Positions 81 through 54,104 of a DNA stretch of 64,000 nucleotides are shown piece by piece. A model generated the notes under the pieces. The model ran no database searches. It saw nothing but the letters and a program-made list of their open reading frames with translations, and was not told the origin of the DNA. A program made the translations under genes and the position numbers. This DNA comes from Bedellia somnulentella (lineage: Eukaryota; Arthropoda; Insecta; Lepidoptera; Bedelliidae), in contig OY755170.1 of the NCBI GenBank assembly GCA_963576735.1, positions 14,678,567 to 14,742,566 on the forward strand. The letters run 5' to 3'. How positions within the stretch are numbered: the stretch's first letter is position 1; each line of letters begins with the position of its first letter.

Positions 81-3000
81 CTGATATACAAACATTGCAT
101 ATCACCTTGTGTTTGTTACGATTTTTAAATTATGAAACAAAGATGAAGTATTTATCCATACCTTGGCACACGCGACGAGCTGGCTCGTGGCGAGGGCGCA
201 GTGGGTGGCGGCCGCGATTATGCCGTTCTGCAGCTGAGGTTCGTCCCGACATTGCGCTGCCACGTTCTTCGCTTTGAGCACCAACGCCGCCGTCGTGTTT
301 GCCACCGCCTTGGCCAGCGATAGTAAGATATCCTACGATCACATATACATGCTATTACTATCACTTAATACTGCTTTATATGTAGCAACAATGACAAACC
401 GAATTGTTTAACACGTTTTAGTAGGTTATTGCCTAAAGCATTCCAAACTTGTTTAGTTGGGTGAGCACAAGGTAATTTGGCATCTTTCTATTACATGTGT
501 ATTGTACTTATCCCGCAAAGACGAATTACGCCACATTGCTTCTATGTCAAATTAATACTGAAATTATACTATACAAAGGTATATGAAGCTACTAACACTT
601 TGATATCACACTTTACTAGCACTGTAAGTATTATTAAAGATCACCGCTTTCTGAATTGAAGGGGATATTAGTAAATTTTATTTAGCTGTAGTTATTATAT
701 TTTTGCTATTACATTCACTTTTTACAGACAGTTAGTCGGAAATAAAACCCCAGCAAATTAACAAAGCAAATGTATTAACAAAAATATTCACATTAGCACA
801 ATTAAAATATATCAAAAAATAAGTTTTTAGGGGTGATCTGTGTGAAGTAAACATTTAACATAATAAACACTTTGACTTCATTATAAATTTCTGTTAGCTT
901 GCAATATTTGTTTTTTTAACAGTATAGAAGATAAAAATGACAAACTATATTAGTAAAAACTGACAGGTCCATAAAGTGTTCCCACTAACCAGTACAATCA
1001 AATGTTTAACATTAAGGGACATTAATACAAATGAACTATGAATACCTAAATGGCTTTTAAAAGTGCATATTTACCAATAAATATACATTAAATTATTATT
1101 CAATTGAGATTATCTGTTCATCAATTAGGATTTCTGATCAATACCATTTATTACGTAAATACCTAATCGGAAAAAACCTTATAATTAAACTATGTCTTCA
1201 ACGCATGTGCCTAGACTAGATGAAATAAAGCATGGCTTTGTACATATACAGCTTTTGGTTTGTACACTTCATTAATATAGTTAGTAAAATACTAAACAAT
1301 AGTTTATATTAGGACTAGATTAGTTAGCAACCCAAAATTTCAATATTAAGTTCTCAGTATAATTAATTACAAATTAAACGTAATACGATAAGGTAATGTC
1401 AGCTATACTATTGACTGGAGTCTTTTATCTATCTTCCTACGCACATCTTACAGGTTTTTGGTTTTATCCAAAAACCAAGTGATTACGTTTACTTCTCTAA
1501 TACACATCAAGATTCTTTTCTATTAAATCGGAAAAGAGTGATGTGGCCACAGTTCTCATTTCTTCAACATAAAATATAGCTAGTTAAGTATATTAGACCT
1601 TAAGCGTGACTATTAGGAAAGTTGAGTCTACAACCGAAATATAGTATAGGATTCAGACAGAATCGAAACAATGACCATCCTCGGGCGTGGCCTCATTCGC
1701 GGAGCACACGCCGCTCGGCAGCAGATGTTGTACGAGGAACGCTATCAATACAACTACTACGGCTATCAAAAACAGAATGTTAAGCCAGTTTTCCTTCCAG
1801 ATAGTTTGCAGCTCCAGCTCTAGACAAATACACCGCGGACAACATTTCTCCTCAGTCCGCGGACAACGCTTTCGACAATATTTACAAAACCCTTTCAACT
1901 CAGCGTTGCCCGTCGTCTGAAAAGTAGGGTTATAAAATATTCTTATTTCAGTCTTTCCTTCTTGCTTGTCTTTTTCATTATTCAATAATACTGTAGTTTT
2001 GCGATCTCTCATTTCGCTAGTGTAGTACTTTTCACTTCTTTTAACAAAACTCTCAAGATCATCTCGTTTCTTTTTATTTATTTCTGACTTCAAAAAGCTA
2101 ACTTCACCTTTTTCCATAAACGTTTCGGTAGTGGTGAGCACACGATTATATTTATCCAAGTTAAAGAGTTTGAGGTTGACGGAACCGCTCACTTTAACCT
2201 CTGGACCCGTTCTAGTCACATCGTTGCGGATGCTCTGACATTCTATTTTCTTAGAGGAGTTATGCTTGTTCAGTTGCTCGTTTATTACATTTTTCTCTGT
2301 TGTACCCGACAAAAAGAACTGTTCCCGCAAAAGATCATTCTTTGTCTTAGAGTCGAAATTAACGTTCTCATAATCGTGATCGTTCGTATCGATGTCTACG
2401 TTGGCATAGACGTGATGGGCAAAATCTGTTTTGAAATTATATATTTTGTCGGAGGTATCGTTTCGAGGGTTAAGGGCGGGGGATGGCGGGTGAGACAGGT
2501 AGTGTTGGCAGTTTTCGAGGACTTGTCCTAGCGTGGAGTGATCTTGTGAGTTTTTCTGTGCGAAGTGCATGTTGGAGTAGTCTAGCGAGCGGTAGTAGTC
2601 GCTGTCGGACTCCTCGAGGATGACGTCGAGGCGCTGCGGTGGCGGCGGGCCCAGCCACTGCCGCGTCGTGTCCACGTCCTCGTACAAACCATCGTCATCT
2701 TTGAACTTCTCCTCCTCCGCGCCCACGTTGAAGTCATCGCAATACGCATCCTTATCTCTACTGAAGAACACCTTGTAGAAGTTGTCGTAGCAATAATTTA
2801 GCTTTCGATACAAGTACGACTTTTTCGTAGTCCTGGTTTTGTTGAACGTGTCGCTGTGTCTAGTTGTTTTTACCTGAGTTTCCTTGTCCTCTTCGGTCTC
2901 TTCGCCGATGGTATGGAGAACACTTGTCGACGCTTCACCTACGCGAGACGCTGCATTCAAAAGGTTCTGACGAGGCTATAAAAATAAACAATTGAATTAG

Positions 3001-6000
3001 TTTTATGATTATTTTATGGTACCTGAATTATAAACCAGTATTTTTTTTAATGCTTACCTCCTTGGTTTCTGGTTCCGCAGCTTTCAGAAGATCAGTAAAA
3101 GCGCTGCAAAGCTTACGAGTTGCGTCTAAGAGACGATCGCCGTTATCTTGGTCGTCCAATAGTGCTGCCAGCATCTGCACACCTATAAAAATTATTGTAA
3201 ATTTAATATTTATGAATAATTACAAAATAAAGGACAATAATAGTAAAAGCATAATAATTAATTCATACCTTTGCTCATCTCTGGAAGGTTACTGGTGATG
3301 GTAGTAATGGCTGCGCCTACAGCTGTATGATCGACTTCTTCGGTGGGACCTGCACATAAAAGCATAAAGTTAATTGTTTAAAGATAAGCCAGAAAACGCA
3401 TATATATATTAATTCTGAACCGATATGTTACCTGCAGTAAGTGTGACTACTTGCGCAGTGGCGGCGTTCATAGCGGCTATCTGAGATGTGACCAACTGTT
3501 TGCTGGAGTCCATCGTACTTTGCTTCCATTTGATAGAGCCTGCGTCACCACCAAGCTCCGGTAATGATGCCTATGAAAACAAATAAATATTATAACCATA
3601 AGCAGATAGCAACATTATCAAGTCAAGAAATAGATTTTATGCATATAATCTAATAGTTAGAGTTAGTAAGAAATCGATTTTATCCATATAATCTAATAGT
3701 TGGCTTGGCAGCCGTACTTATTTTTTTAGATAATATGACACACTTAAACTGATATCACTTACCCTCGTTAGGTGCGTTTCAGTTTGCTTGATGATTTCTC
3801 TTCCTGAAGTGATAGTAGAAAGGAGAGCGCGTTGCGGCTCTGACAATACTGACGTTACTTTCGTCTGCTGACTCTGGGATGCCTATTTACAAAATTTAGT
3901 TAATATTGTCGAATAAAAACGAAGGAGATATACCAAGTAACGCATAATAGGAAGCTACATACTGTGTAATATTACAATTGCAATCAAGCTTGACCAAAAT
4001 ATAGATGGAAAATTTACCTACACAGCCTATTTCCATCACTTTAGGTCCAAAATGAATGCGTGGAACAAATAATTTTCTCTGTTTAGCTGTAATTTATTGC
4101 ATAAATATGAAAAACAGAATAATATAAGTAAAAAATAAAAGAAGCTTACGGTAGGCGGCGCATGTCCGGTTATGATCTGTCCCGAGATGGTGGTTTGCTG
4201 AGCGCTGATCATGTGACCCATGGCAAACGATTTGGCACCTACATCGGCACACAGCCATAACAAAGCAATAAATTAAAATCGCTAAATCATATATTACAAA
4301 AGCATTGCCTACTAAAAACAACTCTTTTTTGTTTTGAGGTGAAATTGGCTTGCCGATATGAAAATACAAGAAATAAAATTGTGCCTGTGATTAAGCATGT
4401 GAAACGATTATAATATAACCAATTTCTTATTGAAGCACAATGTGGAACCAAACTAATAACCAAAACTACTAGTGTATAGTTGCGAAAACATGATTATTGA
4501 AATACATACAAATTGCATATTTTTACTAATATACTATGTACAAGTAGGAATAATTGTTACCCTCAGCTCCTGGTCTCAAAACGGCCGGCTTAGCCACAGA
4601 CTCGGTGTTCACGCGGCCGGATTTGAAGGTATCGTGCTGGATTATGTTAGCCCTACAACAACATACAATTTATATATTTTCTGCGTGTAAAAATTAAGGA
4701 ATATGGCAAAGTTATTTAATTAATAAAATTATAACAAAACTAACTCCTAAATTTATAGAATTGTCTACTTATTACAGCCTGATTAAGTCAGAGCTGAATG
4801 TAAAATTATCTTTCTCTTTGATTATACTCATATTAGAAAAAGACACATTTGTTCTAAGATTAGAGATGATGATCTTTGAGAAAACGTAATTCTATTATAA
4901 ATTTGCTTTAAAATAACAGTACAATAATATTTTTTACTTCAATATTGCCGCATCTAAAAAAGAACAGAAATCAATTAAAAAGTAATATCGGATACTAACT
5001 TGCTGGGCGAAACAGAGTCTTCCAGCATAGCTGAACCCTCATCCCCCTCGATGCCCACGTGATCTTTAGCCCGTTGCTTCCGTAAGATAATGTCGATGTA
5101 TCCCGCGATCACCTGCAGGATTTGCTCGGCCTCCGTCGTTTGCACCGAGTAGTATTGGTCGCTGTAACATATATCAAGGTTATCACCACACCCGTGGACT
5201 GGAGCCTATCCTGAATGTAGTGATTACATCATCACTCACTAAATCGTCCTTCGCACTTGTTTAGTTAGGTTGGTGGAGTTTAACGACTACCTCGCCCTCG
5301 AAGCCTTCGGGTATCAAACCCAAAGGTCATAAGTCACGCTAAATGGCTAACCATGTAAGTTTTAATATTTTTATACCTATTCAATCTCTCAATACTGTTA
5401 CAATATCATTGGCGCAGAAAGATGATTTTCAAAAATTTAGATATAGAAAATAGAAATAACTATGGATATCCTTAAATAGAAGGAATATCCTACCTGTAGT
5501 CACCAAAGTCAAGGGTGAAGGTGTTAGGCGATGCACACCAGCGCCGAACAGTGGTCAGTGGCCAAGACTGCAGAATCTCCTTAGTCTTCTCATCCAGACG
5601 AAGAATGGAATCCTTGGTCACGCCCAGCAAACGGGGCACCAGTTTGTTTTTACCCTTCATTTTTTCCTGTGAAACATCAGTTATATTATAGTATGACCTT
5701 CTTAAGTTCCTGTTCCTAAATGTTTGAAGTTATAAGGTGACTTACTTTAACTAAGAAGAAAGCCACGCCATAGGTTTTGAGCGAGCGAGCCGCTTTGGTA
5801 TAGAGGACCTTCGAGTCGAGTTCACTGAGGCCCGCGTGCTTGCGATGCTCCTCGAAGATTTTCTTCTCGATTCCTTTCACTTTCATGTATGATGCAGGTA
5901 AAAACTCTTTGAGGCTGTAATATACATTGTTTAATTAGATTTTATTTTATTAACGTGTTGGTTGATATAAACAAATTTTTTAGACAGTAATAAAATAAAT

Positions 6001-8117
6001 GATAATTCTGTGCAGGCTTGTAATAAAGAATTAAAGTTATTAAAAACTGTAGTTATCATTAGATGTTATACAACGTCGTAATATTTCATTACATACAAAG
6101 TGAGTTGCGAACAAAGTTTGTGTTTCTATTTAACGAAGCTAAGTGGTTGTGCGATACCACCCTCAGCGCAACTATAAATAGATTTTCATTATGTCTAATA
6201 GTTTGAAAGGGTGAAGTCTTACATGTGGAGGCAATTGGGGAAAATACAAAATCAATTTTATTATTTACTTACTCTAGGAAGCCAGGTTTGTGTTTCTCCT
6301 CTTTGTAGTCACCAAATTGAATTTGACACTGGATGCCGGCGAACTCGCAAGCTATTGAGGAAATATCAAATTTAGTAATGTTCCAATAGCTGGCTATGAA
6401 AGTTTATACTACACAACCGCAACTAATTTTATACATGTTTTATAAGTGCTGTAGTTAAGAGTTGTATTTGAAAATAACAACTTTATTGCTTCCAAAGGGA
6501 AAAAGAATGGCATAAAGAGGTTAGTAATTTAACACTAACATCCTTTCAAATCTAAACCTTTCTCTGTTTTAAATCGCCAATAGTTGTAATTTAAACGTGA
6601 TTATGAATTGTAATTATTTGTCAATGTTTTTGATATATAGAAAGTTTCAAACCTATAATTTTAAAACTTTAAATTGTAACTTGATAAAGTGTCCCTGTTG
6701 ACTTTCAAAAGCTGATCTTCCTGACTTAGGTTGCATTAACGAAACAAGACTGACTACAAGTGCTACCTTTCTCCTGCGTGATTGGATGCGTCCCGTCCAG
6801 GATGGTGTCCCGGGCCTGCACGTAGAGTAAGTTGAGCTGCACGGGGTCGCGCGAGTCCACGTTGCGGTCCGAGAAGAACAGCTTGCGGCGCAGCAGCAGC
6901 GTCTCTGACACGTCTACGCCTTGCTCGCGGAGCGTCTTGGAGGGCTCCACCCAGTTTACTGTGTAAGACGTTTTATATTGGGATATGTATGCTAAGAAAT
7001 TCAGTAGTGTCTTCGAGATCTACTCAGTTTACTGTGTAACACACATTATATAAGAGCCAGCAGTAGCGTCTCCGACACGTCCATGCCTTGCTCGCGGAGG
7101 GTCTTGGAGGGCTCCACCCAGTTTACTGTACACACATACATCATTTTGGTAAATGGGTACTAACAAACACGCAACACACTATATGCGTACTAAGAAAGTC
7201 AGTGGCGTCCGTATGGCAGTCAAATAATGAATCTTTTGAGTATTTATATTGTTTTTTTTTACAATATACAATTTAATGATAAAGGTACCTTCATCATCGG
7301 TTTTAAGTTTCTTTCGCAATTGGTCCATCTTTGCGTCCCTTTCTTTTTCTTGGTGTTTTCGTTTCATAGTCAGAGTTCCATAATTTGGCTTTTCACACGG
7401 ATCAGCTTCCTCTTTTTGGTCTTCGCGAACCTATTACATTAATCATTTTAGTTAGTAATACATTCCACATTTATTGATATTATGCCTCTTGTAATTGCCA
7501 TTAAGTTTCAAGAGTTAAATATTTAAATTAAATCGACTCACCAATCCATATTCGTCATAATTTGTAATACCAATTTTGGTGCAGATAACGACCATCAAGT
7601 TGGCAACTATCTGACTGTCATCCACTAACAGTGTCTTAACGGTTCCTGAAACAGTGAACATAATCAATACTGGTCATTGGACACGTAAACGTATCTTAGG
7701 AAGCGTATCATAGATGACAGGTTGTGCTACTAACCGTCAAGCATTTTCACTCGCAGATTTCTAGTTTTCTTGTTATATTCGAGCAAATCTCCATTATGCA
7801 GAATATAATAGCCGAGACTACGAGTGGGCTCCAGCCAAATGCCTTTTTTGTTGTCTTCCACTGATGTTAGAAAGAGACCGTACTCTTTCGCTGTAAATGA
7901 CATAAACTTTAATGAGTTTTACGTTTACAACATCCGATCCAATTCATAGAAATGAAACTTACGGTCTCCTTGGTTTGCTTCCAATATTTTTTCTCTAATA
8001 ATACGACAGGCGTCGTATACCGTAGTGGAAGGATCAAACTGCATGGTTTTCACCACTTTGCCTCCTTCTAACGAGATTTTCAGTGATAGTGTCGCCATTT
8101 TGCTAAGTGAATATGCC
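1..8117 (-). CDS. rhea: Talin, 5' portion of gene (18 coding exons, continues beyond base 1)
   Basis: Talin links the cytoplasmic tails of beta-integrins to actin at cell-matrix adhesions. Coding exons, in transcript order on the minus strand: 8098-7963, 7890-7735, 7645-7542, 7430-7289, 6958-6767, 6351-6273, 5914-5746, 5666-5494, 5161-5000, 4652-4561, 4238-4150, 3882-3763, 3570-3432, 3349-3269, 3182-3058, 2975-2874, 332-162, 80-1. All introns are GT-AG and all phases agree; the first 16 exons give 687 residues. The protein follows animal talins throughout: MATLSLKISL start, KKGIWLE, LREQGV, SRDPVQLNLLYVQARD, RRWCASP, PRQNLLNAASRVGEAS, LVLKAKNVA. Residue numbers agree with vertebrate talin (PRQNLL at 654). 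The rod from late R2 onward lies outside the window. The gene symbol is the Drosophila name. Family assignment is very secure; exon ends are read by eye. Confidence 0.97.
162..332 (-). CDS. rhea: Talin coding exon 17 (R2)
   Basis: 57 codons, DILLSLAKAVANT to LATSQLVACAK, residues 688-744. It contains AALVLKAKNVAAQC and IIAAATHCALATSQLVAC, among the most conserved rod segments. The donor is AAG|GTATGG at 161. Phase is 0 at both ends. Confidence 0.95.
333..1652 (-). other. Talin intron remainder / possible 3' UTR of the alternative exon
   Basis: AT-rich sequence with no recognised coding or repeat element between coding exon 17 and the stop of the candidate terminal exon. It would be intron in the long talin and 3' UTR in the short one. 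Confidence 0.6.
1147..1152 (-). terminator. Possible polyadenylation signal for the alternative talin exon
   Basis: AATAAA on the minus strand is the first canonical signal downstream of the stop at 1653, about 500 bases away. Such hexamers are common by chance in AT-rich DNA, so this is weak support. Confidence 0.2.
1653..2975 (-). CDS. Candidate alternative 3'-terminal talin exon encoding a membrane-anchored tail
   Basis: The frame of exon 16 passes through its donor and stays open for 406 codons to TGA at 1655-1653. There is no ATG in the first 101 added codons (first at 2570), which argues for a spliced exon rather than a separate gene. The tail begins VKTTRHSD. It has a basic, Tyr-rich start (KKSYLYRKLNYCYDNFYK), an acidic stretch, PPPPQR, two Y-x-N-V motifs (2397-2408 and 2361-2372), and a Cys cluster at about 1822-1893 (CKYCRKRC, CCPRCIC). 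A hydrophobic run at about 1718-1787 (NILFLIAVVVVLIAFLV) is followed by some 26 residues. No known family was recognised. If used, the product would be 1093 residues: FERM head, R1, the first part of R2, then this tail. Function is inference; a nested unrelated gene starting at 2570 (305 residues) is the alternative. Confidence 0.62.
   Translation of the reverse strand, partial: PRQNLLNAASRVGEASTSVLHTIGEETEEDKETQVKTTRHSDTFNKTRTTKKSYLYRKLNYCYDNFYKVFFSRDKDAYCDDFNVGAEEEKFKDDDGLYEDVDTTRQWLGPPPPQRLDVILEESDSDYYRSLDYSNMHFAQKNSQDHSTLGQVLENCQHYLSHPPSPALNPRNDTSDKIYNFKTDFAHHVYANVDIDTNDHDYENVNFDSKTKNDLLREQFFLSGTTEKNVINEQLNKHNSSKKIECQSIRNDVTRTGPEVKVSGSVNLKLFNLDKYNRVLTTTETFMEKGEVSFLKSEINKKKRDDLESFVKRSEKYYTSEMRDRKTTVLLNNEKDKQEGKTEIRIFYNPTFQTTGNAELKGFCKYCRKRCPRTEEKCCPRCICLELELQTIWKENWLNILFLIAVVVVLIAFLVQHLLPSGVCSANEATPEDGHCFDSV
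2874..2975 (-). CDS. rhea: Talin coding exon 16 (start of R2), canonical splice form
   Basis: 34 codons, PRQNLLNAASRVGEAS to the final ETQ. The acceptor is TTTTTATAG; its TAG is also an in-frame stop, so the reading frame opens exactly at the exon edge. The donor is CAG|GTAAAA at 2873, which departs from GTRAGT at its last two bases. Splicing to 332 joins in phase 0 and restores the canonical R2 sequence, continuing DILLSLAKAVANT. The frame also stays open through this donor (see 1653-2975). Confidence 0.93.
3058..3882 (-). CDS. rhea: Talin coding exons 12-15 (rod bundle R1)
   Basis: Exons are 3882-3763, 3570-3432, 3349-3269 and 3182-3058, residues 499-653. They encode amphipathic helices, including LSTITSGREIIKQTE, SSKQLVTSQIAAMNAATAQV, HTAVGAAITTI and VQMLAALLDDQDNGDRLLDA, in the order seen in vertebrate R1. 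Donors are GTAAGT, GTAACA, GTATGA and GTAAGC. Confidence 0.93.
4150..4652 (-). CDS. rhea: Talin coding exons 10 and 11 (head-rod linker)
   Basis: Exon 10 is 4652-4561 and exon 11 is 4238-4150, about residues 438-498. The sequence is poor in predicted structure, and its end, MISAQQTTISGQIITGHAPP, matches the SGQ-x-x-x-GHMPP region that closes the vertebrate linker. In vertebrates this linker is a calpain target; no cleavage site is claimed here. Confidence 0.9.
5000..5666 (-). CDS. rhea: Talin coding exons 8 and 9 (F3 integrin-binding domain)
   Basis: Exon 8 is 5666-5494 and exon 9 is 5161-5000. Visible motifs are KMKGKNKLVPRLLG, RRWCASPNTFTLDFGDY and QVIAGYIDIILRK. The Arg-Trp of RRWCASP corresponds to the Arg358-Trp359 pair that binds the NPxY region of beta-integrin in vertebrate talin, so integrin binding is expected to be kept. 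Exon 9 ends in the acidic MLEDSVSPS stretch that leads to the linker. Confidence 0.95.
5746..6351 (-). CDS. rhea: Talin coding exons 6 and 7 (F2 to F3)
   Basis: Exon 6 is 6351-6273 (ACEFAGIQCQIQFG, HKPGFL) and exon 7 is 5914-5746 (LKEFLP, ARSLKTYGVAFFLVK). Both use GTAAGT donors. The segment ends at the start of the F3 phosphotyrosine-binding-like domain. The AFFLV stretch corresponds to the hydrophobic pocket region used to contact the membrane-proximal integrin helix in vertebrate talin. Confidence 0.94.
6767..6958 (-). CDS. rhea: Talin coding exon 5 (F2 domain start)
   Basis: Residues 180-243. It reads NWVEPSKTLREQGV, ETLLLRRKLFFSD and SRDPVQLNLLYVQARD, the best conserved part of the FERM F2 region. 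The first 68 bases, with their acceptor, are duplicated in the intron immediately upstream (see 7058-7125). The donor GTAGCA is weak. Confidence 0.95.
7058..7125 (-). pseudogene. Partial duplicate of talin coding exon 5 within the intron
   Basis: This repeats the first 68 bases of exon 5 with few changes, reading NWVEPSKTLREQGMDVSETLLL, and keeps the acceptor (TACAG|TAAACTGG). The copy ends where exon 5 continues with RRK, has no donor, and meets a stop a few codons later (ALI-stop). Flanking intron sequence up to about 7215 also resembles that next to the real exon, so the event was a tandem duplication of some 150 bp. It is most likely a non-functional duplicate. Confidence 0.8.
7289..7645 (-). 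CDS. rhea: Talin coding exons 3 and 4 (F1 domain)
   Basis: Exon 3 is 7645-7542 and exon 4 is 7430-7289; the interval 7541-7431 is an intron. Together they cover about residues 98-179, with GTVKTLLVDDSQ, ICTKIGITNYDEYGL and then a basic stretch ending LRKKLKTDDE. The basic, less conserved part fits the F1 loop that contacts acidic lipids in other talins (family knowledge). Donors are GTGAGT and GTACCT; the second is weak. Confidence 0.92.
7735..7890 (-). CDS. rhea: Talin coding exon 2 (end of F0)
   Basis: This exon completes the F0 domain (residues 46-97). It contains EYGLFL, NKKGIWLEPTRSLGYYIL and NGDLLEY, which match the F0 core of known talins. The acceptor is TTTACAG and the donor GTTAGT; the exon enters and leaves in phase 1. 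Confidence 0.93.
7963..8117 (-). CDS. rhea: Talin first coding exon with 5' UTR remainder and start codon
   Basis: The ATG is at 8098-8096, context AAA-ATG-G. The N-terminus MATLSLKISLEGG begins the F0 ubiquitin-like domain, residues 1-45. A pyrimidine-rich acceptor (TTCGTATTTGCAG, AG at 8119-8118) lies 19 bases before the ATG, so the exon begins at 8117 and at least one non-coding exon lies further upstream. The donor is GTAAGT at 7962. This start is preferred because it reproduces the family N-terminus exactly. Confidence 0.95.
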
Positions 8118-27244: not shown

Positions 27245-27339
27245 TCCTCAGATAATTTAATGTTTTTTTGACATGAATTCCTCATGTGGGGATTATTACT
27301 CATAAATAAAAGATGTTATTAAAGGAAAGAAAAATTTTC

Positions 27340-27412
27340 GACACTGGCGGGGTTCGAACCCGCGACCTTCGGGTATACGCCCCCGTCGCTCTGCCAACTG
27401 AGCTACAGTGTC
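27340..27412 (-). tRNA. tRNA-like sequence, copy 1 (probably not a functional tRNA)
   Basis: It has a perfect 7-bp acceptor stem (GACACTG/CAGTGTC), a D arm (GCTC/GAGC), a T arm (GCGGG/CCCGC with loop TTCGAAC), and A and B boxes. The anticodon arm is abnormal: only CGGG/CCCG pair, around an 8-base loop GGCGTATA without a normal T33. It is more likely the tRNA-derived core of a repeat than a decoding tRNA. Confidence 0.55.
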
Positions 27413-27660
27413 AGTTGGCATCCAGCGCGAAATTTCTCTATCCTTTGTTTCTTTCTTTTTTACACGTTCAAGTAGTGTTTGCGTTTCCTACCTCCGAATT
27501 TTAACTAATTCGGACGGCCACTTGTCTACCTTTTCAGATAGAATGCAAATGTTGGAAACGCTTAACTATCACATAATTTAATGTTTTTTTTGACATGAAT
27601 TCCTCATGTGGGGATTATTACTCATAAATAAAAGATGTTATTAAAGGAAAGAAAAATTTC

Positions 27661-27733
27661 GACACTGGCGGGGTTCGAACCCGCGACCTTCGGGTATACG
27701 CCCCCGTCGCTCTGCCAACTGAGCTACAGTGTC
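27661..27733 (-). tRNA. tRNA-like sequence, copy 2
   Basis: Identical to copy 1, 321 bases further on, with the same abnormal anticodon arm. Confidence 0.55.
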
Positions 27734-28049
27734 AGTTGGCATCCAGCGCGAAATTTCTCTATCCTTTGTTTCTTCTTTTTTACACGTTCAAGTAGTGTTT
27801 AAAAAAATTTTCTTTCCTTTAATAACATCTTTTATTTATGAGTAATAATCCCCACATGAGGAATTCATGTCAAAAAAACATTAAATTATGTGATAGTTAA
27901 GCGTTTCCAACATTTGCATTCTATCTGAAAAGGTAGACAAGTGGCCGTCCGAATTAGTTAAAATTCGGAGGTAGGAAACGCAAACACTACTTGAACGTGT
28001 AAAAAAGAAAGAAACAAAGGATAGAGAAATTTCGCGCTGGATGCCAACT

Positions 28050-28122
28050 GACACTGTAGCTCAGTTGGCAGAGCGACGGGGGCGTATACCCGAAGGTCGC
28101 GGGTTCGAACCCCGCCAGTGTC
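28050..28122 (+). tRNA. tRNA-like sequence, copy 3
   Basis: Opposite orientation, followed by GAAATTTTT, which could serve as a polymerase III terminator. Confidence 0.55.
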
Positions 28123-28208
28123 GAAATTTTTCTTTCCTTTAATAACATCTTTTATTTATGAGTAATACTCCTCAGATAAACATCATTTGTAAAATTACAA
28201 TTTTCTAG

Positions 28209-28408
28209 NNNNNNNNNNNNNNNNNNNNNNNNNNNNNNNNNNNNNNNNNNNNNNNNNNNNNNNNNNNNNNNNNNNNNNNNNNNNNNNNNNNNNNNNNNNN
28301 NNNNNNNNNNNNNNNNNNNNNNNNNNNNNNNNNNNNNNNNNNNNNNNNNNNNNNNNNNNNNNNNNNNNNNNNNNNNNNNNNNNNNNNNNNNNNNNNNNNN
28401 NNNNNNNN
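28209..28408. other. Assembly gap of 200 N
   Basis: The sequence just before the gap (28123-28208) nearly duplicates 29672-29758, including the unique-looking edge CTCCTCAGATAAACATCATT. This suggests that the array was not resolved by the assembler. Confidence 0.98.
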
Positions 28409-28578
28409 CCTCCGAATTTTAACTAATTCGGACGGCCACTTGTCTACCTTTTCAGATAGAATGCAAATGTTGGAAACGCTTAACTATCACATAATTTAAT
28501 GTTTTTTTTGACATGAATTCCTCATGTGGGGATTATTACTCATAAATAAAAGATGTTATTAAAGGAAAGAAAAATTTC

Positions 28579-28711
28579 GACACTGGCGGGGTTCGAACCC
28601 GCGACCTTCGGGTATACGCCCCCGTCGCTCTGCCAACTGAGCTACAGTGTCAGTTGGCAGAGCGACGGGGGCGTATACCCGAAGGTCGCGGGTTCGAACC
28701 CCGCCAGTGTC
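28579..28711. repeat. Palindrome of two tRNA-like cores head to head
   Basis: A complete minus-strand core (28579-28651) is joined directly to a plus-strand core lacking its first bases (28652-28711). This forms a near-perfect inverted repeat of about 60 bp with almost no spacer. Confidence 0.9.
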
Positions 28712-28958
28712 GAAATTTTTCTTTCCTTTAATAACATCTTTTATTTATGAGTAATAATCCCCACATGAGGAATTCATGTCAAAAAAACATTAAATTATGT
28801 GATAGTTAAGCGTTTCCAACATTTGCATTCTATCTGAAAAGGTAGACAAGTGGCCGTCCGAATTAGTTAAAATTCGGAGGTAGGAAACGCAAACACTACT
28901 TGAACGTGTAAAAAAGAAAGAAACAAAGGATAGAGAAATTTCGCGCTGGATGCCAACT

Positions 28959-29031
28959 GACACTGTAGCTCAGTTGGCAGAGCGACGGGGGCGTATACCC
29001 GAAGGTCGCGGGTTCGAACCCCGCCAGTGTC
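28959..29031 (+). tRNA. tRNA-like sequence, copy 4
   Basis: Same 73-nt core; start of the exact 320-base period. Confidence 0.55.
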
Positions 29032-29278
29032 GAAATTTTTCTTTCCTTTAATAACATCTTTTATTTATGAGTAATAATCCCCACATGAGGAATTCATGTC
29101 AAAAAAACATTAAATTATGTGATAGTTAAGCGTTTCCAACATTTGCATTCTATCTGAAAAGGTAGACAAGTGGCCGTCCGAATTAGTTAAAATTCGGAGG
29201 TAGGAAACGCAAACACTACTTGAACGTGTAAAAAAGAAAGAAACAAAGGATAGAGAAATTTCGCGCTGGATGCCAACT

Positions 29279-29351
29279 GACACTGTAGCTCAGTTGGCAG
29301 AGCGACGGGGGCGTATACCCGAAGGTCGCGGGTTCGAACCCCGCCAGTGTC
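29279..29351 (+). tRNA. tRNA-like sequence, copy 5
   Basis: Same core, 320 bases after copy 4. Confidence 0.55.
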
Positions 29352-29598
29352 GAAATTTTTCTTTCCTTTAATAACATCTTTTATTTATGAGTAATAATCC
29401 CCACATGAGGAATTCATGTCAAAAAAACATTAAATTATGTGATAGTTAAGCGTTTCCAACATTTGCATTCTATCTGAAAAGGTAGACAAGTGGCCGTCCG
29501 AATTAGTTAAAATTCGGAGGTAGGAAACGCAAACACTACTTGAACGTGTAAAAAAGAAAGAAACAAAGGATAGAGAAATTTCGCGCTGGATGCCAACT

Positions 29599-29671
29599 GA
29601 CACTGTAGCTCAGTTGGCAGAGCGACGGGGGCGTATACCCGAAGGTCGCGGGTTCGAACCCCGCCAGTGTC
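29599..29671 (+). tRNA. tRNA-like sequence, copy 6
   Basis: Same core, 320 bases after copy 5 and last in the array. Confidence 0.55.
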
Positions 29672-29758
29672 GAAATTTTTCTTTCCTTTAATAACATCTT
29701 TTATTTATGAGTAATACTCCTCAGATAAACATCATTTGTAAAAATTACAATTTTCTAG

Positions 29759-43040: not shown

Positions 43041-43863
43041 TCTCGTCTTTAGTCATCTCATTTGATTAATTTATTATGGTCTAGGGTTAAAATATCCTAA
43101 TAAGTTGGACGTATGAATTTAATTTTGGGTAAAACATCAATAATTAGTCTAAATACCAGTTTTCTTAAAGGCAACTTTGCAGTCCTATTTTTCGATTCTC
43201 TGCCTAATTTTGTTAAATAGGATTTTGTCGTCGAAAAGTTAAGATCTTTTACGTACGTACAGCTACGAGTATTTATTAAAAACGCACAGTTGAAACTTGA
43301 TGAGATCACAATTCCATTAAAATTTCAGATCGGATTATTCTTACCACATATTACTATCACATAGTAATAACACCTGAAGTAATATTCGGTCATCAAAATA
43401 TACGATTATATACAAACCGGAGTAGCTTTCTAACCAAAGGAATTATATGTAATGTATGTCATTAGAATTAAATTCAATCTGATGGAACCATACTTTAATC
43501 TCAATGAGTTGTCGCACAAGAAAACAAGTGCATTGGTATTTGACCACATTGCAATGTATCTGCCATACACGGAGCGGTCTACCTATATCGGTACGTTTCC
43601 ACCATATTGGGTAGAGCAGTGAATTAACATATACTACATTTTACGTCCACGTCCAAGGCTGTTCTAATACAACGATAACGCTACTGATGCAAACAGTATG
43701 GGCAGAGTAAGTTTTAATGTGAACGGTTGCGCTCAAATGCGAAAGCTTTATTAAATCTATAATTGAAATTGAATGGTAAAATCATTTAAAATATTTTCAT
43801 ATTTCATTAAAGTTTAATGGTATAACTGTAAATATATTTTACAGGAGCTATAGGTTCACTATC

Positions 43864-43934
43864 GATACAGGCGGGAATCGAACCCGCGACCTCGAGTATA
43901 CGCCCCGACGCTCTGCCAATTGAGCCACCGTGTC
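43864..43934 (-). tRNA. Diverged tRNA-like sequence, dispersed copy
   Basis: 71 nt, related to the array cores. Here the anticodon stem is five pairs (TCGGG/CTCGA) around a 7-base loop GCGTATA, nominal anticodon GTA but C at position 33, and the acceptor stem has a mismatch. The flanks (CAGCGCGAAATTC, CCCCACATGAGGTTTTCATG) match the array units, so it is a dispersed member of the same family. Confidence 0.5.
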
Positions 43935-44284
43935 AATGGCTGCCAGCGCGAAATTCTTCTATCCTTTATTTCTTTTACACGTTTATGTAGTGTTTGCGTT
44001 TCCTACCTCCCCACATGAGGTTTTCATGAACAAAAAGATTTAAAATACATTAAGTGTTTAATAAATTAATAGTTAAAAAACACTAAAAAAACACGCTTTA
44101 TCACAAGAGCTTTCTAACAAGTCCAAACACGGCTATGATACGATAATCCATCATGAAGTTTCAGTTAATATCTTCCGGCTCCATCATCAGTTCAGCTCGA
44201 CAGTACCATATTATTGTATTGTCATCAAAATCACATACAACCGCCATTGTTTTTACGTAGTTTTCTAAAATTTAATTACACTGA

Positions 44285-45057: not shown

Positions 45058-45773
45058 GTCGAGCAAGCACTGAAATTAATGGCATCATATCTTTATAAAA
45101 GAACTTTAAAGGTTGAAATTAATGGAACCACGTCGGAAGGATCGGAAATAGAGATGGGCCTTCCTCAAGGTTCTATATTTGGCCCATTACTGTTTCTGAT
45201 TTATATTAATGATTTACCATATATGGTACAAACGTATTCTGAGATAGTTATGCTTAATTATTTAATGTAACGAGATCCTCTACATCTCTTGACGACGTAA
45301 ATAAAGCTATCTCACTGGTATTGCATTGGTTTACTGTAAATAACCTGGTTCTGAATGCCAAAACACTAAATGTATTAAATTTTCTTTACCGAATGTTAGG
45401 CAAGTTGATGCCAATATTGTTATTGACAGTGAAAAAGTAGAATTAGTGAAAGAGACAAAATTCCTAGGGATAATAATCGATTCTGAGTTGCAATGGGGAC
45501 CCCATATACTAACACTTTCTAAAAAGCTGAGCTCAGCAGCGTATGCCGTGCGTAAGATTAGAGAAATAGCAGACATAGAAACAGCTCGCATTGTTTATTT
45601 CAGTTATTTCCTTAGTATTATGTCGTACGGTATTTTATTATGGGGTAAAGCGGTTGATTTTCATAAAGTTTTTGTCTTACAAAAGCGAGCTATCCGATCT
45701 ATTTACATGTTAAGGTCGAGGTATTCATTGCGCGAAAAATTTAAAGATATTGGCATTTTCAAATCAAATCAAA
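45058..45773 (+). mobile_element. LINE-A: decayed reverse transcriptase, first part
   Basis: It encodes RT motifs EMGLPQGSIFGPLLFLIYIN (45150-45212), then after frame breaks FLGIIIDSELQWG and SYGILLWG. The ADD catalytic motif is lost: the region after PYMVQTYSEIVML runs into stops near 45270. The element is interrupted at 45773 and resumes at about 48143. Confidence 0.85.
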
Positions 45774-48142
45774 TCAATCGTTTATTGCATTCATCAATGT
45801 GTATAACAGTTCTTATTTCATAATTTATAACAGTTCTACATTGAAGACCCGGTGGGGCACAGCAATTTCTTATATCTAAGTTATTTTACAATAAAACTGA
45901 ATAGGAGAGGAGGAGGAAATTCCATAGAAGAAATTATAACTTTCATTCTCACACAAACACACACAAAACAAATACATACACAAGCACAACTTTAGAGCAT
46001 ATACATTTTCATGTAATATTGGCCGTTTCTAGCACTCTTTCATCCCAAATTTCTTCTAAGTACTCTTAATCGGGTCAATTTATACATTCAAGGTTACATA
46101 AATTCATAAGAAGCTGAAAATTGGCACAATTGTTCAAAACATGATTATAAATGAAACCTTAAAAGTCCCCATCGTTCCGAGGTGTGCTAAAAAATTTACA
46201 CGAGGTCAAAGGTCAAAAAAATGAGTTTTTTGCGATTTTAAGCGAAACAGTGAGTTTTTCCGCAAAATCACCCTGGTACAAAATTGTAGATCAGAAAATT
46301 CTCTACAAAAAAGATATCAATAATTTTGTTCCTAAAACCCACCATTTTGAAGATATAACGCGTTGAAAAGTTCGATCATTGGTAATCTTCATACTTTGCA
46401 CACGTTTCCACGCCACCTATGACTTATGTACTTATTTACGCGTTTTATTTTAACGTGGTATCCCCTGTAGGCCTATTCCACGGGTCTGCAGTGATTTTAT
46501 TTGTTTTAAAACTATTGTAAAATATTATTGTACATATCGGTTGGTTAAAATAATGGCGGTGTAATTGAAAATGAAATGATTAATATTCCTCGTCTGATTC
46601 GTAATTTTCCAGGATTACTGTTTCTTGTTCTTCGTCTTCTTCTTGTTCTTCTTCCTGTTCTTCTTCTTCTTCTTTTTCTTCTATTTCACAGATCAACTGT
46701 CCCACTAGCGATTCCTCATTGGTATCAAATGAGTCTTCTAGATTAGCTGACTCAACATTAGAGCACGATCGGCCTTGGCAGTTTGTGCATGCTAGGGAAC
46801 AAAACAGTCCAACTTTTCTGCATCCACATTTAGCATTACAATACAACCTTTTTTACAGTTGAAAATATTGAGTTGAGAAGTTTCTCAGGTGCTGGTGGAA
46901 ATAAAGTTAGAACTGGCTCTAATGTATTGTCGACCAACTTCCAACCCCAGTCTTAAGGGGGCCAGCTGATTACCAAGCCACACTTGAACTTGGTAATATA
47001 CCCGAAATAAATGTTGGTGAGCAGCTACTGGGGTTGGAGGTAAAGAAGCTAGTTGTACTTGCTTTTTATTACGCGTATTTTTAACAAAAGTTGCATATCG
47101 CAACTTATCTAAGCAAGTAAGTAAGTAGTTTTCATATTTTAACTTATATTGTATAGAAACAAGTTACAATCACCAATAGCAAATAAATTTAAGTTATAAC
47201 ACCTTATAAGTGATGTTCATACGTGGCGTACATGTGCAAAGTATGAAGATTACCAATGATCGAACTTTTCAACGCGTTATATCTTCAAAATGGTGGCTTT
47301 TAGGAAAAAAAATATTGATATCTTTTTTGTAGAGAATTTTCTGATCTACAATTTTGTACTGAGGTGATTTTGCGAAAAAACTCACCGTTTCGTAAAAATC
47401 GCAAAAAACTCTTTTTTTTGGCCTTTGACCTCGTGTAAAATTTTTAGCACACCTCGGAACGATGGGGACTTTTGAGGTTTCATATATAATTGAATTTATG
47501 TAACCTTCCTCCTTATTTTAGGCCTAAATTGACCGGACTATCTGTTATGCTGTAATAGCACTTACTGATCAAGAAAAATTTTAGTTTTGTTGAAAATTTT
47601 GCATATGGTTCTATATTTTTTAACGAGTTTGGAAGATGGTTATATATTTTAATTGACATGACGAATGGGCTAGACGTGTGTAGAGTTAATTTTGAAATTG
47701 GAAGGGTCAGTTTATTTCTATGCCGAAGTGAGTAATACGTCTGAGATTCATCGCGATTCTTGTACAGTTCTTGGTTATTTCTGACAAATTTACACATTTC
47801 CATAATATAAATAGACGGAACAGAAAGTATTTTGTTATTTCTAAAATGCGGTTTACAGCTTTTGAGTTGTTCGATGTTAACAATAATCCGAATCATTTTT
47901 TTCTGCAATGTAAGTAAGGCTGGAGCTTCCGTACTGTTTCCCCACAATATAATGCCGTAACTGAGCCAGGAATGGGCGTATGCATAGTATACGGCCTTAG
48001 CGGTTTCAAAATTTGTTGTTTTTTTAATTTCATTTAAAGCATAAACAAATCTACTAATTTTCGATACTATTTTATTGATGTGACTTTTCCAGTTAATGTG
48101 CGTGTCAATATTAGTACCTAAAAGCGAGAATTCGTCAACTAC
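45774..48142 (-). mobile_element. LINE-B inserted in LINE-A, itself interrupted by a TIR element
   Basis: Read on the minus strand, it starts near 48142 with NVVDEFSLLGTNIDTHINW and continues through SWLSYGIILWGNSTEAP, KSCKPHFRNNKILSVPSIY and CYYSIT at 47545. After the TIR element (47540-46067) it resumes EYLEEIWDERVLETANIT-stop near 46010. It ends with GCAATAAACGATTGATTTGA and an ATTTG repeat tail at 45774-45800. It is 5'-truncated, lacking the RT core. Confidence 0.85.
46067..47540 (-). mobile_element. TIR element copy 1 (CXC/acidic protein remnant)
   Basis: Long terminal inverted repeats of about 320-340 bp. The right end is TAGTCCGGTCAATTTAGG on the minus strand; the left is the decayed TAATCGGGTCAATTTA. 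A 3-bp target duplication TCT lies at 46064-46066 and 47541-47543. Inside, on the minus strand, are pieces of a protein: MRYATFVKNTRNKKQVQLAS, then after a deletion and frame breaks CNAKCGCRKVGLFCSLACTN and an acidic Glu-rich end YESDEEY. Removing the element and one TCT restores the LINE-B frame exactly. Confidence 0.9.
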
Positions 48143-48600
48143 ATTTAATTTTAACTGTCCCTTGCCAATACATATTTGAGAATTTAATGTATGCCAAAAA
48201 GAATAAAGGCCAATTTAGTAAATAGTGATAGGCATACTGTTAACACTCGAAATAAGGAGAAACTTAACGTACCGAAGTGGAGACTTAATAAAATAAGTAA
48301 CTCCTTTATGGGACTACCCCTGAAAATGTTCAACAAACTTCCTTCTGACATATTGGGATTGCCTGTGGCCTCTTTTAAAAAGGCAATTAAAGCCATGCTT
48401 TTAAAGAAATCTTACTACAGTGTTCAAGAATTTTTTAAACGACATAAGCCCAACGCGCATATGACCATGTCCGTAAAGCTATAAATCTTCCCTCGTTATT
48501 CCTAGGAATAATTGTCTGGTGAGGATTTTTCTTCTCACGTTATGTGATTGGTTTTTGTGATGGACAATTGATTTTAATTATATCAAACTAAAGTTTGGTT
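48143..48600 (+). mobile_element. LINE-A: C-terminal continuation after the insertion
   Basis: It resumes LTVPCQYIFENLMYAKK and, after one frame shift at about 48183-48225, NTRNKEKLNVPKWRLNKI, GLPLKMFNKLPSDI and KAIKAMLLKKSYYSVQEF to a stop near 48484. This is the usual C-terminus of this LINE type and continues KFKDIGI at 45766. Confidence 0.8.
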
Positions 48601-51300: not shown

Positions 51301-51437
51301 GTAAATGATATATTTTTTGTTTTCTTGTGGCAGAAGAACATACTGATTTTCCCCGCAATCCGATCTTGACAATACGACATATAGTTGGCCATGTGAAAAA
51401 CAATCTTAGCCGTAAGCTCCACTTAAATCAATTGTTG

Positions 51438-54104
51438 TGAAAGATACACCAAAGCCGTGGTTAACTCCCAACATAAGGTTTATGATGCGACTTCGGGATG
51501 AAGCACATAGTAAGGCTAAGAGGGAGAAGAGTGAGACTAGCATTAAGTATTACAAAGATTTGAAACATCAAGTTATATCATCGTTACATGCTGAAAAAAA
51601 GGCTTTTTTCGAGCATTCCATTAACAATAATGATGGTGATTCACGAACCCTTTGGAAAAATTTGAAACGTTATATCTTGCCAAATAAGCGCGATGTTGAA
51701 CTGCCACCTTCTTTTGATGATCCAGATAAGATTAATGATTTTTTCTGTACCGTGCCAGGATCTTGTAACGTTAGTATTTCAGACTTGACTTTTTTTGAGT
51801 TTAACCGCTACGGAGACAGCACATTATCGTTGGAACCAGTGACGAGCGATATTGTTTATAAAGCTGTCAAAAAAATCAAAACAAAAGCTACAGGTTTCGA
51901 CAAGGTTTCGACAGAATAAATATTGACATGATACTTCTGACATTTCCTACTACACTTGACGTATTGACAGCCATTGTTAACAAAAGCATTATCTCTAGTA
52001 AATTTCCTTCTTTTTGGAAAACAGCCAAAATCACACCGCTCCCGAAAAAGCCTAATCCTACCCTTACTTCCGATTTACGAGCAATCAGTATACTCCCATG
52101 TGCATCGAAGATAGTAGAAAGGGTGGTATATGATCAGCTTTCGAAATACCTAGAGGGGAATAATATTTTGCCGGAGCTTCAATCTGGTTTCCGCAAAAGC
52201 CATTCAACAGCAACAGCGCTGTTAGATGTTGTCAATAATGTTTTAAAAGATCGCGATAGTGGGTTAAGCACGTTATTGGCATTATTAGACTTTTCTAGGG
52301 CTTTCGATTGTTTGTTTTCTACCCTGGCTCTATCCAAGATGTCGTATTATGGATTTGATGTCGCTACAGTTCGTTGGTTCGAAAGTTATTTGTCCGACCG
52401 TAAGCAATTTGTCGAATTACGTAAGAGGAATGGTGTAGTCCTTACATCCTCCGAGAGAACACTAGAGCGAGGAGTTCCACAGGGTTCGATATTGGGTCCA
52501 CTCTTGTTTATTCTCTACACTGCAGATCTTGTAAATAGCATAAAAAAATGCAAGTTTCATATATATGCAGATGATTTGCAACTGTACATTTCTGGTCATC
52601 CCAAAAATATAGTAAACACAGTAGGTAAATTGAATAATGATCTAAATCAAATTGCTGCTTGGACGGAAAAGAATTGCCTTGTTTTGAACCCGGCGAAATC
52701 TAAGTTCATGATTCTTGGTACTAAGACTCAGATCTCTAATACGTTGGAGGCCTTAACGACTTGTGATGTAGCTAACATGGATCAACCATTAGAAAGAGTC
52801 TATGAAGCACGAAATCTAGGCATACTGATGGACGGGGAACTGCGGTTCGTAAACTATGTTCTGTCAGTAGTCAGCAACTGCTTTTATAGACTCAAAATTC
52901 TATACAATATTCGCGATTACCTAAGTGAGAATTTGCGTGTTCAACTTTGCGAATCATTGATATTGTCTAGGATAAACTATTGTGACGTGGTCTATGGTGG
53001 TTGCATACTGGGTCGTACACAGAGGCTTATACAACGTGTGCAAAACGCATGCGCACGTTTTTGCTATCGTATTCCTCCTCGCTCCCATATCACCCCGTAT
53101 TTGAACGAAGCAAAACTTTTAAATATGAAGGGTCGTAGATGTTTACATCTCGCAAGTCTTATGTTCAGTGTAGTTAGGCTTGAATCACCGGCTTATTTGC
53201 ATAAAAAACTGCAATGGTCTAAAAGTGACTATCAGTTCAAAGTCAGGGCGATCTTGCCTCTGCACCGATCAGTGGCGTTCCGGGGTAGTTTTAGGTTTGC
53301 TGCGTCCAAATGCTGGAACGATATTCCCCCACCTATACGTGCTGTGACTGGTAGAATCACTTTTAAGCGCAAGCTTAAAGAATTCCTACTAGCCCAGCAA
53401 AACCCGTCCAGCAAGGCTCCATAGAGCAATCAAATGTTTTCCTTTCATGAAACCTATCCTATCCTGTCCAATCCTGTTCTCATTATTTTTATTATTATTT
53501 TTTAGTATTTATTATTTGTATCTCGTAGTTACGTATCTTTAGGTATAGGGAAAAGTTATTTTTATTATTTATATTTTTAGAAAATACTAAACAATATATA
53601 TGTTATTCTGATGTATTCGTTACAATGTATGTTTTTTTTATGTTATTTTTATTGATTCTCTTTATATGTCGTATGATTATGAGCTATATATTTATATCGA
53701 CTATTTGTTTTTACATAAGTAATGTATTATATATTGTATTCCGCTTGTATGACTCTCGTGCTGTCACTGGAGAGCGCTGACTGAAAATCAGTGCTGTGAG
53801 GTAACTCCTCACAGTTTTTGCTGAGTCAGCGCCATTTCGCTGTTCAATGGCACAATGTTTTTTTTTAGTTTATCATTTTAATTTGTTAATAATTTCCTCT
53901 TTTTGATTTTGTGTTTCTTTGTAAACATTTAAGGTATTATTTTTATTGTTTTTTATATTTTCACTGTTTTTTTGTAGTTGTAAATATTTTGTTAACTTTT
54001 GTTTTTTTTTTTGGTTTCGTTATTATTATTTTTGTGTTGCATATCTGTTGTGCCATATTTACGGCGAATAAATGTATTTCTTCTATCTTCTTCTATTTCT
54101 TCTA
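51438..54104 (+). mobile_element. Jockey/CR1-like LINE, 5'-truncated, near-intact reverse transcriptase
   Basis: Reverse transcriptase of a non-LTR retrotransposon. The first ORF (51437-51919) covers the post-endonuclease region (KPWLTPNIRFMMRLRDEA) to KATGFDKVS. A one-base shift near 51910 leads to the main ORF (51928-53424, 498 codons). The main ORF has LLDFSRAFDCL (motif A), ERGVPQGSILGPLLF, FHIYADDLQLY with YADD at 52564-52575, and a C-terminal half ending in RITFKRKLKEFLL. The endonuclease is missing. The 3' UTR holds a nested stem-loop (53774-53832) and ends GGCGAATAAATGTATTTC with a TTCTTCTA repeat tail. It looks fairly young but cannot encode a full element. Confidence 0.92.
53774..53832 (+). 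ncRNA. Structured element in LINE 3' UTR
   Basis: The outer stem GCGCTGACT/AGTCAGCGC is 9 bp, and the inner stem CTGTGAGG/CCTCACAG is 8 bp with loop TAACT. A related LINE end at 62975-63034 folds the same way with different paired bases. It may be recognised by the element's reverse transcriptase (inference). Confidence 0.65.

What the first reader, a model, noticed from the sequence alone, without database searches (positions are those of the whole stretch)
1653..2975. Talin exon that reads through its splice donor into a 406-codon tail with a membrane segment
Seen: the frame of coding exon 16 opens exactly at its acceptor, crosses the donor CAG|GTAAAA in frame, and stays open for 1218 more bases with a tail that has ordered features (Tyr-rich, acidic, Pro, Cys cluster, hydrophobic segment). 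No ATG occurs in the first 101 added codons. Known: talin is a cytosolic integrin activator whose head binds integrin and whose rod binds actin and vinculin. Inference: intronic polyadenylation would yield a membrane-tethered head-R1 protein able to bind integrin but not transmit force through the full rod. It could be a tissue-restricted modulator or competitor of full talin. I do not know of a described talin form like this.
Basis: partly seen in the sequence, partly recalled or inferred. Interest (0 to 1): 0.88.

Follow-up and report, generated by a model that had tools for sequence, protein, structure and literature searches.

The report
Membrane-anchored talin form in butterflies, moths
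In butterflies and moths the gene for talin, the protein that switches on cell-adhesion receptors from inside the cell, seems to carry a conserved extra ending inside one of its introns that would turn the talin head into a protein fixed in the cell membrane; the ending is kept in dozens of related sequences, but its RNA has yet to be seen.

Summary
Talin exon 16 (2975-2874, minus strand) runs through its donor CAG|GTAAAA and stays open for 406 codons to a stop at 1655-1653; the frames of the other 15 exons close 1-37 codons past their donors.

The tail is conserved coding sequence. Of 37 protein homologues (34, three more), 24 reach the end of exon 16 and 23 read straight through it in frame; the spacer behind it varies from 9 to 40 codons (22 rows). 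All 37 rows that cover it, window included, keep TE[IV][RH]IxYNP and one hydrophobic segment. In 23 of 24 read-through rows, window included, the codons exclude G at donor position +5: a conserved weak donor.

Best reading: intron retention or intronic polyadenylation makes a 1093-residue protein: talin head, R1, tyrosine-rich scaffold with an NPxF motif, cysteine cluster, membrane anchor, no actin-binding rod. I think it tunes integrins as a membrane-held talin head.

Not shown: transcript, topology, binding. Joined forms found are gene models only (four named Lepidoptera). No description turned up in five searches of an open-licence library. A sub-threshold match to baculovirus family DUF2616 is a lead only.

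The parts
3058..8098 (-). Talin coding exons 1-15: 8098-7963, 7890-7735, 7645-7542, 7430-7289, 6958-6767, 6351-6273, 5914-5746, 5666-5494, 5161-5000, 4652-4561, 4238-4150, 3882-3763, 3570-3432, 3349-3269, 3182-3058 (FERM head F0-F3, linker, most of R1)
   Evidence: In-phase GT/AG model guided by PDB talin alignments and Pfam
2874..2975 (-). Talin exon 16, end of R1
2868..2873 (-). Donor GTAAAA (no G at +5), read as the first two codons of the tail
   Evidence: for the window; 23 of 24 read-through rows, window included, cannot have G at +5
1656..2873 (-). 406-codon tail; stop TGA at 1655-1653
   Evidence: homologues
2763..2828 (-). Block 1, TKKSYLYRKLNYCYDNFYKVFF, one of the two best conserved stretches
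2667..2690 (-). GLYEDVDT, conserved tyrosine in an acidic context
2574..2633 (-). RLDVILEESDSDYYRSLDYS, conserved double tyrosine
1917..1955 (-). KTEIRIFYNPTFQ, NPxF motif; TE[IV][RH]IxYNP in 37 of 37 rows that cover it
1824..1886 (-). Cysteine cluster CxxCxxxC...CCxxCxC
   Evidence: CCxxC in 33 of 38 rows; absent from P0031 and P0033-P0035, not covered by fragment P0032
1815..2054 (-). Stretch with a sub-threshold match to Pfam DUF2616
   Evidence: E 0.0076, 16.5 bits against a cut-off of 25
1722..1787 (-). Predicted transmembrane segment
   Evidence: Hydropathy in 37 of 38 rows, the exception being fragment P0032
1656..1721 (-). Short C-terminal end with two cysteines, predicted outside
   Evidence: Two or more Cys after the segment in 33 of 37 rows; more K/R on the N side in 31 of 37
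1147..1152 (-). AATAAA, possible poly(A) signal (no more frequent than chance)
677..682 (-). AATAAA, possible poly(A) signal (no more frequent than chance)
162..332 (-). Talin exon 17, used when exon 16 is spliced normally

Best explanation
Lepidopteran talin has a conserved alternative 3' end. When the weak donor of exon 16 is not used, the transcript runs on into the unusually long intron 16 and the talin frame continues for about 400 codons to a stop, probably with a poly(A) site inside the intron. The protein has the talin FERM head (F0-F3), the linker and R1, then a tyrosine-rich cytosolic scaffold with an NPxF motif and usually a cysteine cluster, one membrane helix and a short outside end. 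It lacks R2-R13 and with them the main actin-binding and dimerising parts (recalled). Shown: the frame, its conservation and junction, the hydrophobic segment, the +5 weakness of the donor. Inferred: the transcript, the topology, that the held head still binds Rap1, lipids and integrin beta tails, and that it tunes integrins without carrying force. The NPxF motif may bind talin's own F3 domain (a PTB fold) or another PTB protein; my guess is a self-ligand that occupies F3 until an integrin displaces it. The confidence is for the membrane-anchored talin form; for the integrin-tuning role alone I would say 0.45, for the self-ligand 0.2.
For: 34 homologues and 3 more. 24 of 37 reach the end of exon 16; 23 of these read through in frame, and the spacer of 9-40 codons is in frame in all 22 rows that show both ends. 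Gene models joining talin exons to the tail in Spodoptera exigua, Colias eurytheme, Papilio machaon and Pieris macdunnoughi. No G possible at +5 in 23 of 24 read-through rows, against G in 11 of the 15 other donors of this gene. Intron 16 is 2541 bp against 72-415 bp for the other 15. One hydrophobic segment in 37 of 38 rows; more K/R on its N side in 31 of 37. TE[IV][RH]IxYNP in 37 of 37 covering rows. Tail GC is highest at the third codon position, as in the head.
Against: No transcript seen: with length limits fit for the whole isoform, one search returned three gene models and one genomic-looking ORF, and ten of the 37 homologues read in from intron 15, so are unspliced (my count). The P. 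macdunnoughi model was made in genome-and-protein mode; the other three were not checked. AATAAA is at chance level and the exon 17 acceptor is not unusually weak. P0019 has other residues before block 1. The P. machaon model jumps from exon 16 into the tail, and P0031 lacks block 1. The +5 pattern could come from selection on the residues or from shared descent. No structure model could be made.
Confidence: 0.72

Rival explanations
1. The tail is a nested gene with its own promoter or first exon inside the talin locus, and its open frame back to exon 16 is incidental.
For: P0019 has residues before block 1 that are not exon 16. No transcript is known.
Against: The tail has no Met before codon 102 although three of its best conserved stretches lie before it. 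The variable spacer is open and in frame with exon 16 in 22 of 22 rows that show both ends, which an untranslated stretch would not keep.
Confidence: 0.07
2. The tail is a talin ending, but it is reached by splicing from exon 16 (or an earlier exon) to an acceptor inside the tail rather than by reading through the donor.
For: The Papilio machaon model jumps from KETQ to DKQEYGSDF; P0031 lacks block 1.
Against: 23 of 24 rows at the junction read straight through, and block 1, which such splicing would skip, is one of the two best conserved stretches. The P. machaon model may be a predictor's choice of a GT donor (inference).
Confidence: 0.1
3. The membrane-anchored talin form exists but acts mainly as a brake: it occupies integrin tails or sequesters Rap1 and PIP2 and so competes with full talin.
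For: It has the head and lacks the rod; an NPxF motif could also mask F3 (inference).
Against: Membrane recruitment of talin is an activating step in vertebrate work (passages of PMC5701058 and PMC4589889). Nothing here tests activator against brake.
Confidence: 0.3
4. Chance open frame or annotation artefact.
For: None found.
Against: 37 homologues with E down to 5e-148 and invariant motifs; shuffles.
Confidence: 0.01

Closest known systems
Full-length talin (talin 1/2, fly rhea)
   Same: FERM head F0-F3, linker and R1, encoded by the same exons
   Different: The predicted form stops just past R1, has no further rod, and ends in a membrane segment
Truncated talin 2 isoforms of mouse testis and kidney (PMC2702505, abstract and passages)
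   Same: Conserved shorter products of a talin gene made by alternative transcripts
   Different: Those lack the N-terminal half and keep the C-terminal rod; this one keeps the head and replaces the rod
Talin head freed by calpain cleavage (recalled)
   Same: A head without the rod, able to act on integrin
   Different: Made by proteolysis and soluble; this one is gene-encoded, keeps R1 and is membrane-anchored
Membrane versus secreted immunoglobulin mu chain by poly(A)/splice choice (recalled)
   Same: Choice of 3' end decides whether a product has a membrane segment
   Different: Unrelated protein; here the membrane form comes from reading through a donor
Pfam DUF2616, listed for a nucleopolyhedrovirus ORF (PMC8951894, one passage)
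   Same: Profile match that starts at profile position 5 in each of the 9 rows whose coordinates I saw
   Different: Best 22.0 bits against a cut-off of 25; no relative in three viral-contig scans

Membership tests
Talin | FERM head with F0, F1, F2 and F3 | tested here: met
   Pfam FERM_f0, FERM_N, FERM_M and IRS/PTB in the three full-length homologues
Talin | Rod bundle R1 | tested here: met
   Exons 13-16 align with talin 1 R1 structures
Talin | R2-R13, C-terminal actin-binding and dimerisation parts | tested here: not met
   Absent from the read-through product by its stop codon; only the exon-17 form can have them, and the window holds just the start of that
Intronic-polyadenylation (composite terminal exon) isoform | Exon extends past an ordinary donor to an in-frame stop | tested here: met
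   23 of the 24 homologues at the junction
Intronic-polyadenylation (composite terminal exon) isoform | Transcript with a poly(A) end inside the intron | not testable with these tools
   No RNA data at hand; AATAAA count at chance
Single-pass membrane protein | One hydrophobic segment long enough for a membrane helix | tested here: met
   19-residue hydropathy maximum 2.1-3.2 near the C terminus in 37 of 38 rows
Single-pass membrane protein | Insertion with the talin part in the cytosol | tested here: inconclusive
   Positive-inside count fits in 31 of 37 rows; no experiment
PTB-domain ligand (NPxF/Y) | NPxF/Y motif kept by selection | tested here: met
   YNP in 37 of 37 covering rows; the last residue is F in 36 and L in P0031
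PTB-domain ligand (NPxF/Y) | Binding to a PTB domain such as talin F3 | not tested
   Structure prediction not accepted
DUF2616 | Score at or above the Pfam gathering cut-off | tested here: not met
   Best seen 22.0 of 25 bits

The most novel reading that the evidence does not exclude
Lepidoptera split talin, by regulated use of one weak splice donor, into a force-bearing form and a membrane-anchored head that carries its own integrin-like NPxF ligand and phosphotyrosine scaffold: a self-gated integrin switch not known from other animals; and baculoviruses of Lepidoptera share ancestry with part of that tail (DUF2616).
Probability: 0.12. Interest if true: 0.93.

Novelty: new variant of a known kind. 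Interest (0 to 1): 0.77.

Why it matters
Talin is the central integrin activator and force sensor of animal cells and is treated as a cytosolic protein. A conserved, gene-encoded form that fixes the head in the membrane and drops the rod would separate integrin activation from force transmission by natural design, and would make it testable what the head does alone. It also shows a large, motif-dense protein domain sitting inside an intron of a well studied gene; database entries already carry it as 'Talin-1' of Papilio machaon or as unnamed products.

Tried and rejected
Chance ORF: rejected. Known domain in the tail: none above cut-off in Pfam; in NCBIfam four weak families in one or two rows each, best E 0.0068; in the PDB by sequence nothing but a kinetochore chain at E 0.67; in PHROGs one weak hit, E 0.067, for two proteins scanned. 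Relatives in viral contigs and phage records: none. A wider family by a profile of 15 tails: the same 34 proteins, none new. Poly(A) signals as evidence: rejected, at chance. A weak acceptor of exon 17 as evidence: rejected, its pyrimidine share of 0.50 lies within the range of the other 15 (0.38-0.75). Gene models as proof of transcription: rejected for P. macdunnoughi (passage of PMC8085124), not checked for the other three. dN/dS: I had no homologous DNA. Docking of the NPxF motif on F3 by structure prediction: never run. That DUF2616 includes AcMNPV Ac34 is recalled; the passages did not confirm it. The DUF2616 control used 110-residue reversed or shuffled pieces of four rows against whole real proteins, so it is not a fully matched control. 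Papers on such an isoform: searches showed none in the titles and abstract beginnings listed (1 of 2, 4 of 4, 0, 15 of 30 and 7 of 7 papers listed); most subscription journals are not held.

Full report
WHAT IS THERE. The window holds the 5' part of an insect talin gene on the minus strand. Guided by PDB talin alignments and Pfam, I modelled 16 coding exons with in-phase GT/AG junctions: 687 residues covering F0-F3, linker and R1. The start ATG at 8098 is assumed; two of the three full-length homologues carry extra N-terminal residues in their gene models. Exon 16 (2975-2874) ends CAG|GTAAAA. Exon 17 (332-162) is intact and continues the talin alignment; by my count the 16/17 boundary falls at about residue 665 of talin 1, just past R1 (R1/R2 limit at 655/656 recalled). 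Between them lies an intron of 2541 bp; the 15 introns before it are 72-415 bp. The exon 16 frame stays open through the donor for 406 codons.

MORE THAN CHANCE. The frames of the other 15 exons close 1-37 codons past their donors; in 20,000 shuffles of the tail's own bases the longest open run was 177 codons. The decisive evidence is homology: 34 proteins with E from 5e-148 to 2e-13, and three more when the whole isoform set the length limits (the fourth hit there, P0021, was already known). A profile search with 15 tails gave the same 34 and none new.

THE JUNCTION IS CONSERVED. Of the 37 homologues, 24 reach the end of exon 16. Of these, 23 read straight on in frame with V as first residue, and one, the Papilio machaon model, jumps into the tail. 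Twelve of the other 13 begin inside the tail; one, P0019, has other residues before block 1. The stretch from the junction to block 1 varies from 9 to 40 codons and is in frame in all 22 rows that show both. Ten rows have foreign residues in place of exon 15 before PRQNLL, so they look like unspliced genomic reading of intron 15 (my count). Four are gene models joined to earlier talin exons: Spodoptera exigua (P0005), Colias eurytheme (P0036), Papilio machaon (P0037), Pieris macdunnoughi (P0038). These four are Lepidoptera by my knowledge; I looked up only Pieris. The organisms of the other 33 rows are not named, so restriction to Lepidoptera is an inference. From the window to the three full-length butterfly models the head is 87-90% identical over aligned residues, the tail 53-62%. 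P0033-P0035 form a distant group on a long branch.

A CONSERVED WEAK DONOR. Because the donor is read as codons, homologous proteins tell some of its bases. Codon 2 after the junction is T (9), N (6), K (3), I (3), F (1) or R (1, P0002) in the 23 read-through homologues, and K in the window. T, N, K, I and F codons never have G as second base, so 23 of 24 donors cannot have G at +5. Of the 15 other donors of this gene 11 have it. The rows are related by descent and selection on the residues could also cause this, and I computed no full splice-site score; still, an exon junction that ordinary talin needs keeps a suboptimal donor. The exon 17 acceptor is not unusual.

ANATOMY OF THE TAIL. The best-conserved 12-residue stretches are YRKLNYCYDNFY, KTEIRIFYNPTF and ILEESDSDYYRS. 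TE[IV][RH]IxYNP is kept in 37 of 37 rows that cover it (36 homologues and the window), the distant group included; the residue after NPx is F in 36 and L in P0031, and the residue before Y is F in 26, V in 8, I in 2, T in 1 (my count). The motif lies 47-51 residues before the membrane tryptophan in 31 of 37 rows and 35-42 in six. Fourteen tyrosine columns are at least 80% conserved; the YxN and YEDV contexts look like SH2 sites (inference). A cysteine cluster sits before the helix: CCxxC in 33 of 38 rows, missing in P0031 and P0033-P0035, not covered by fragment P0032; P0024 lacks the first half. One hydrophobic segment is present in 37 of 38 rows, P0032 being the exception, with more K/R on its N side in 31 of 37 and two or more cysteines after it in 33 of 37. 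This predicts a cytosolic talin part and a short outside end.

HOW IT MOST LIKELY WORKS. Shown: a conserved coding extension of talin, its membrane-type segment and motifs, a donor without +5 G. Inferred: when exon 16's donor is passed over, by intron retention or because an internal poly(A) site wins, the extended messenger is made; AATAAA counts do not help. The product keeps what the head needs to meet the membrane, Rap1 and integrin, loses the autoinhibiting and actin-binding rod parts (recalled), and is held at the membrane by its own helix. Recruitment of talin to the membrane is an activating step in vertebrate work (passages of PMC5701058, and PMC4589889). So I expect a force-free integrin modulator held at the membrane; activator or competitor is open. 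The NPxF motif is a plausible ligand of a PTB domain, and talin F3 is one (passages of PMC10198623).

AGAINST. No transcript was seen; one search gave gene models and one genomic-looking ORF. The P. macdunnoughi annotation used Braker2 in genome and protein mode (passage of PMC8085124). P0019, the P. machaon model and P0031 depart from the simple read-through picture at its 5' end.

COMPARED WITH THE KNOWN. Mouse talin 2 has conserved short forms, but they lack the N-terminal half (PMC2702505, abstract and passages). Fly papers on talin do not mention such a tail in the passages I read (PMC6453563; PMC4230843). Searches listed no paper describing it; listings show titles and beginnings of abstracts only, and one search listed 15 of 30.

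A SIDE LEAD. Pfam DUF2616 matches 16 of 38 rows at E up to 1, best 1.5e-4, below its cut-off. In the nine rows whose coordinates I saw, the match starts at profile position 5; of the 20 rows listed singly do not match. None of eight reversed or shuffled 110-residue decoys matched DUF2616. PMC8951894 lists DUF2616 for HearNPV ORF38 (one passage). From memory the family includes AcMNPV Ac34, which by passages of PMC5089780 is present in all sequenced alphabaculoviruses and, by its title and abstract, retains Arp2/3 in the nucleus; that link was not confirmed here. Shared ancestry of host talin tail and virus protein would be striking but is unproven.

Noticed in passing
7049-7125 (-): Partial tandem copy of the start of talin exon 5, with its acceptor, just upstream of exon 5 (NWVEPSKTLREQGMDVSETLLLA); it then diverges.
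   Followed up: partly
27248-29749: Cluster of seven tRNA-like genes in about 320-bp units, in both orientations, with near-identical copies; Rfam scores all seven 55.1 bits, ARAGORN reads a four-base anticodon. An eighth tRNA lies at 43862-43935 (-).
   Followed up: partly
51862-53421 (+): 520-codon open frame with a reverse transcriptase domain (Pfam RVT_1, E 1.9e-30), probably part of a non-LTR retrotransposon.
   Followed up: no
1815-2054 (-): Tail stretch with a repeated sub-threshold match to the baculovirus family DUF2616.
   Followed up: partly
P0019 (homologue, no window coordinates): The one homologue whose residues upstream of block 1 are not talin exon 16: frameshift, other splicing, or a lost link in that species.
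   Followed up: no
45344-45820 (+), 47516-48214 (-), 51416-51916 (+): Open frames of 159, 233 and 167 codons with no Pfam match at E up to 0.001.
   Followed up: no
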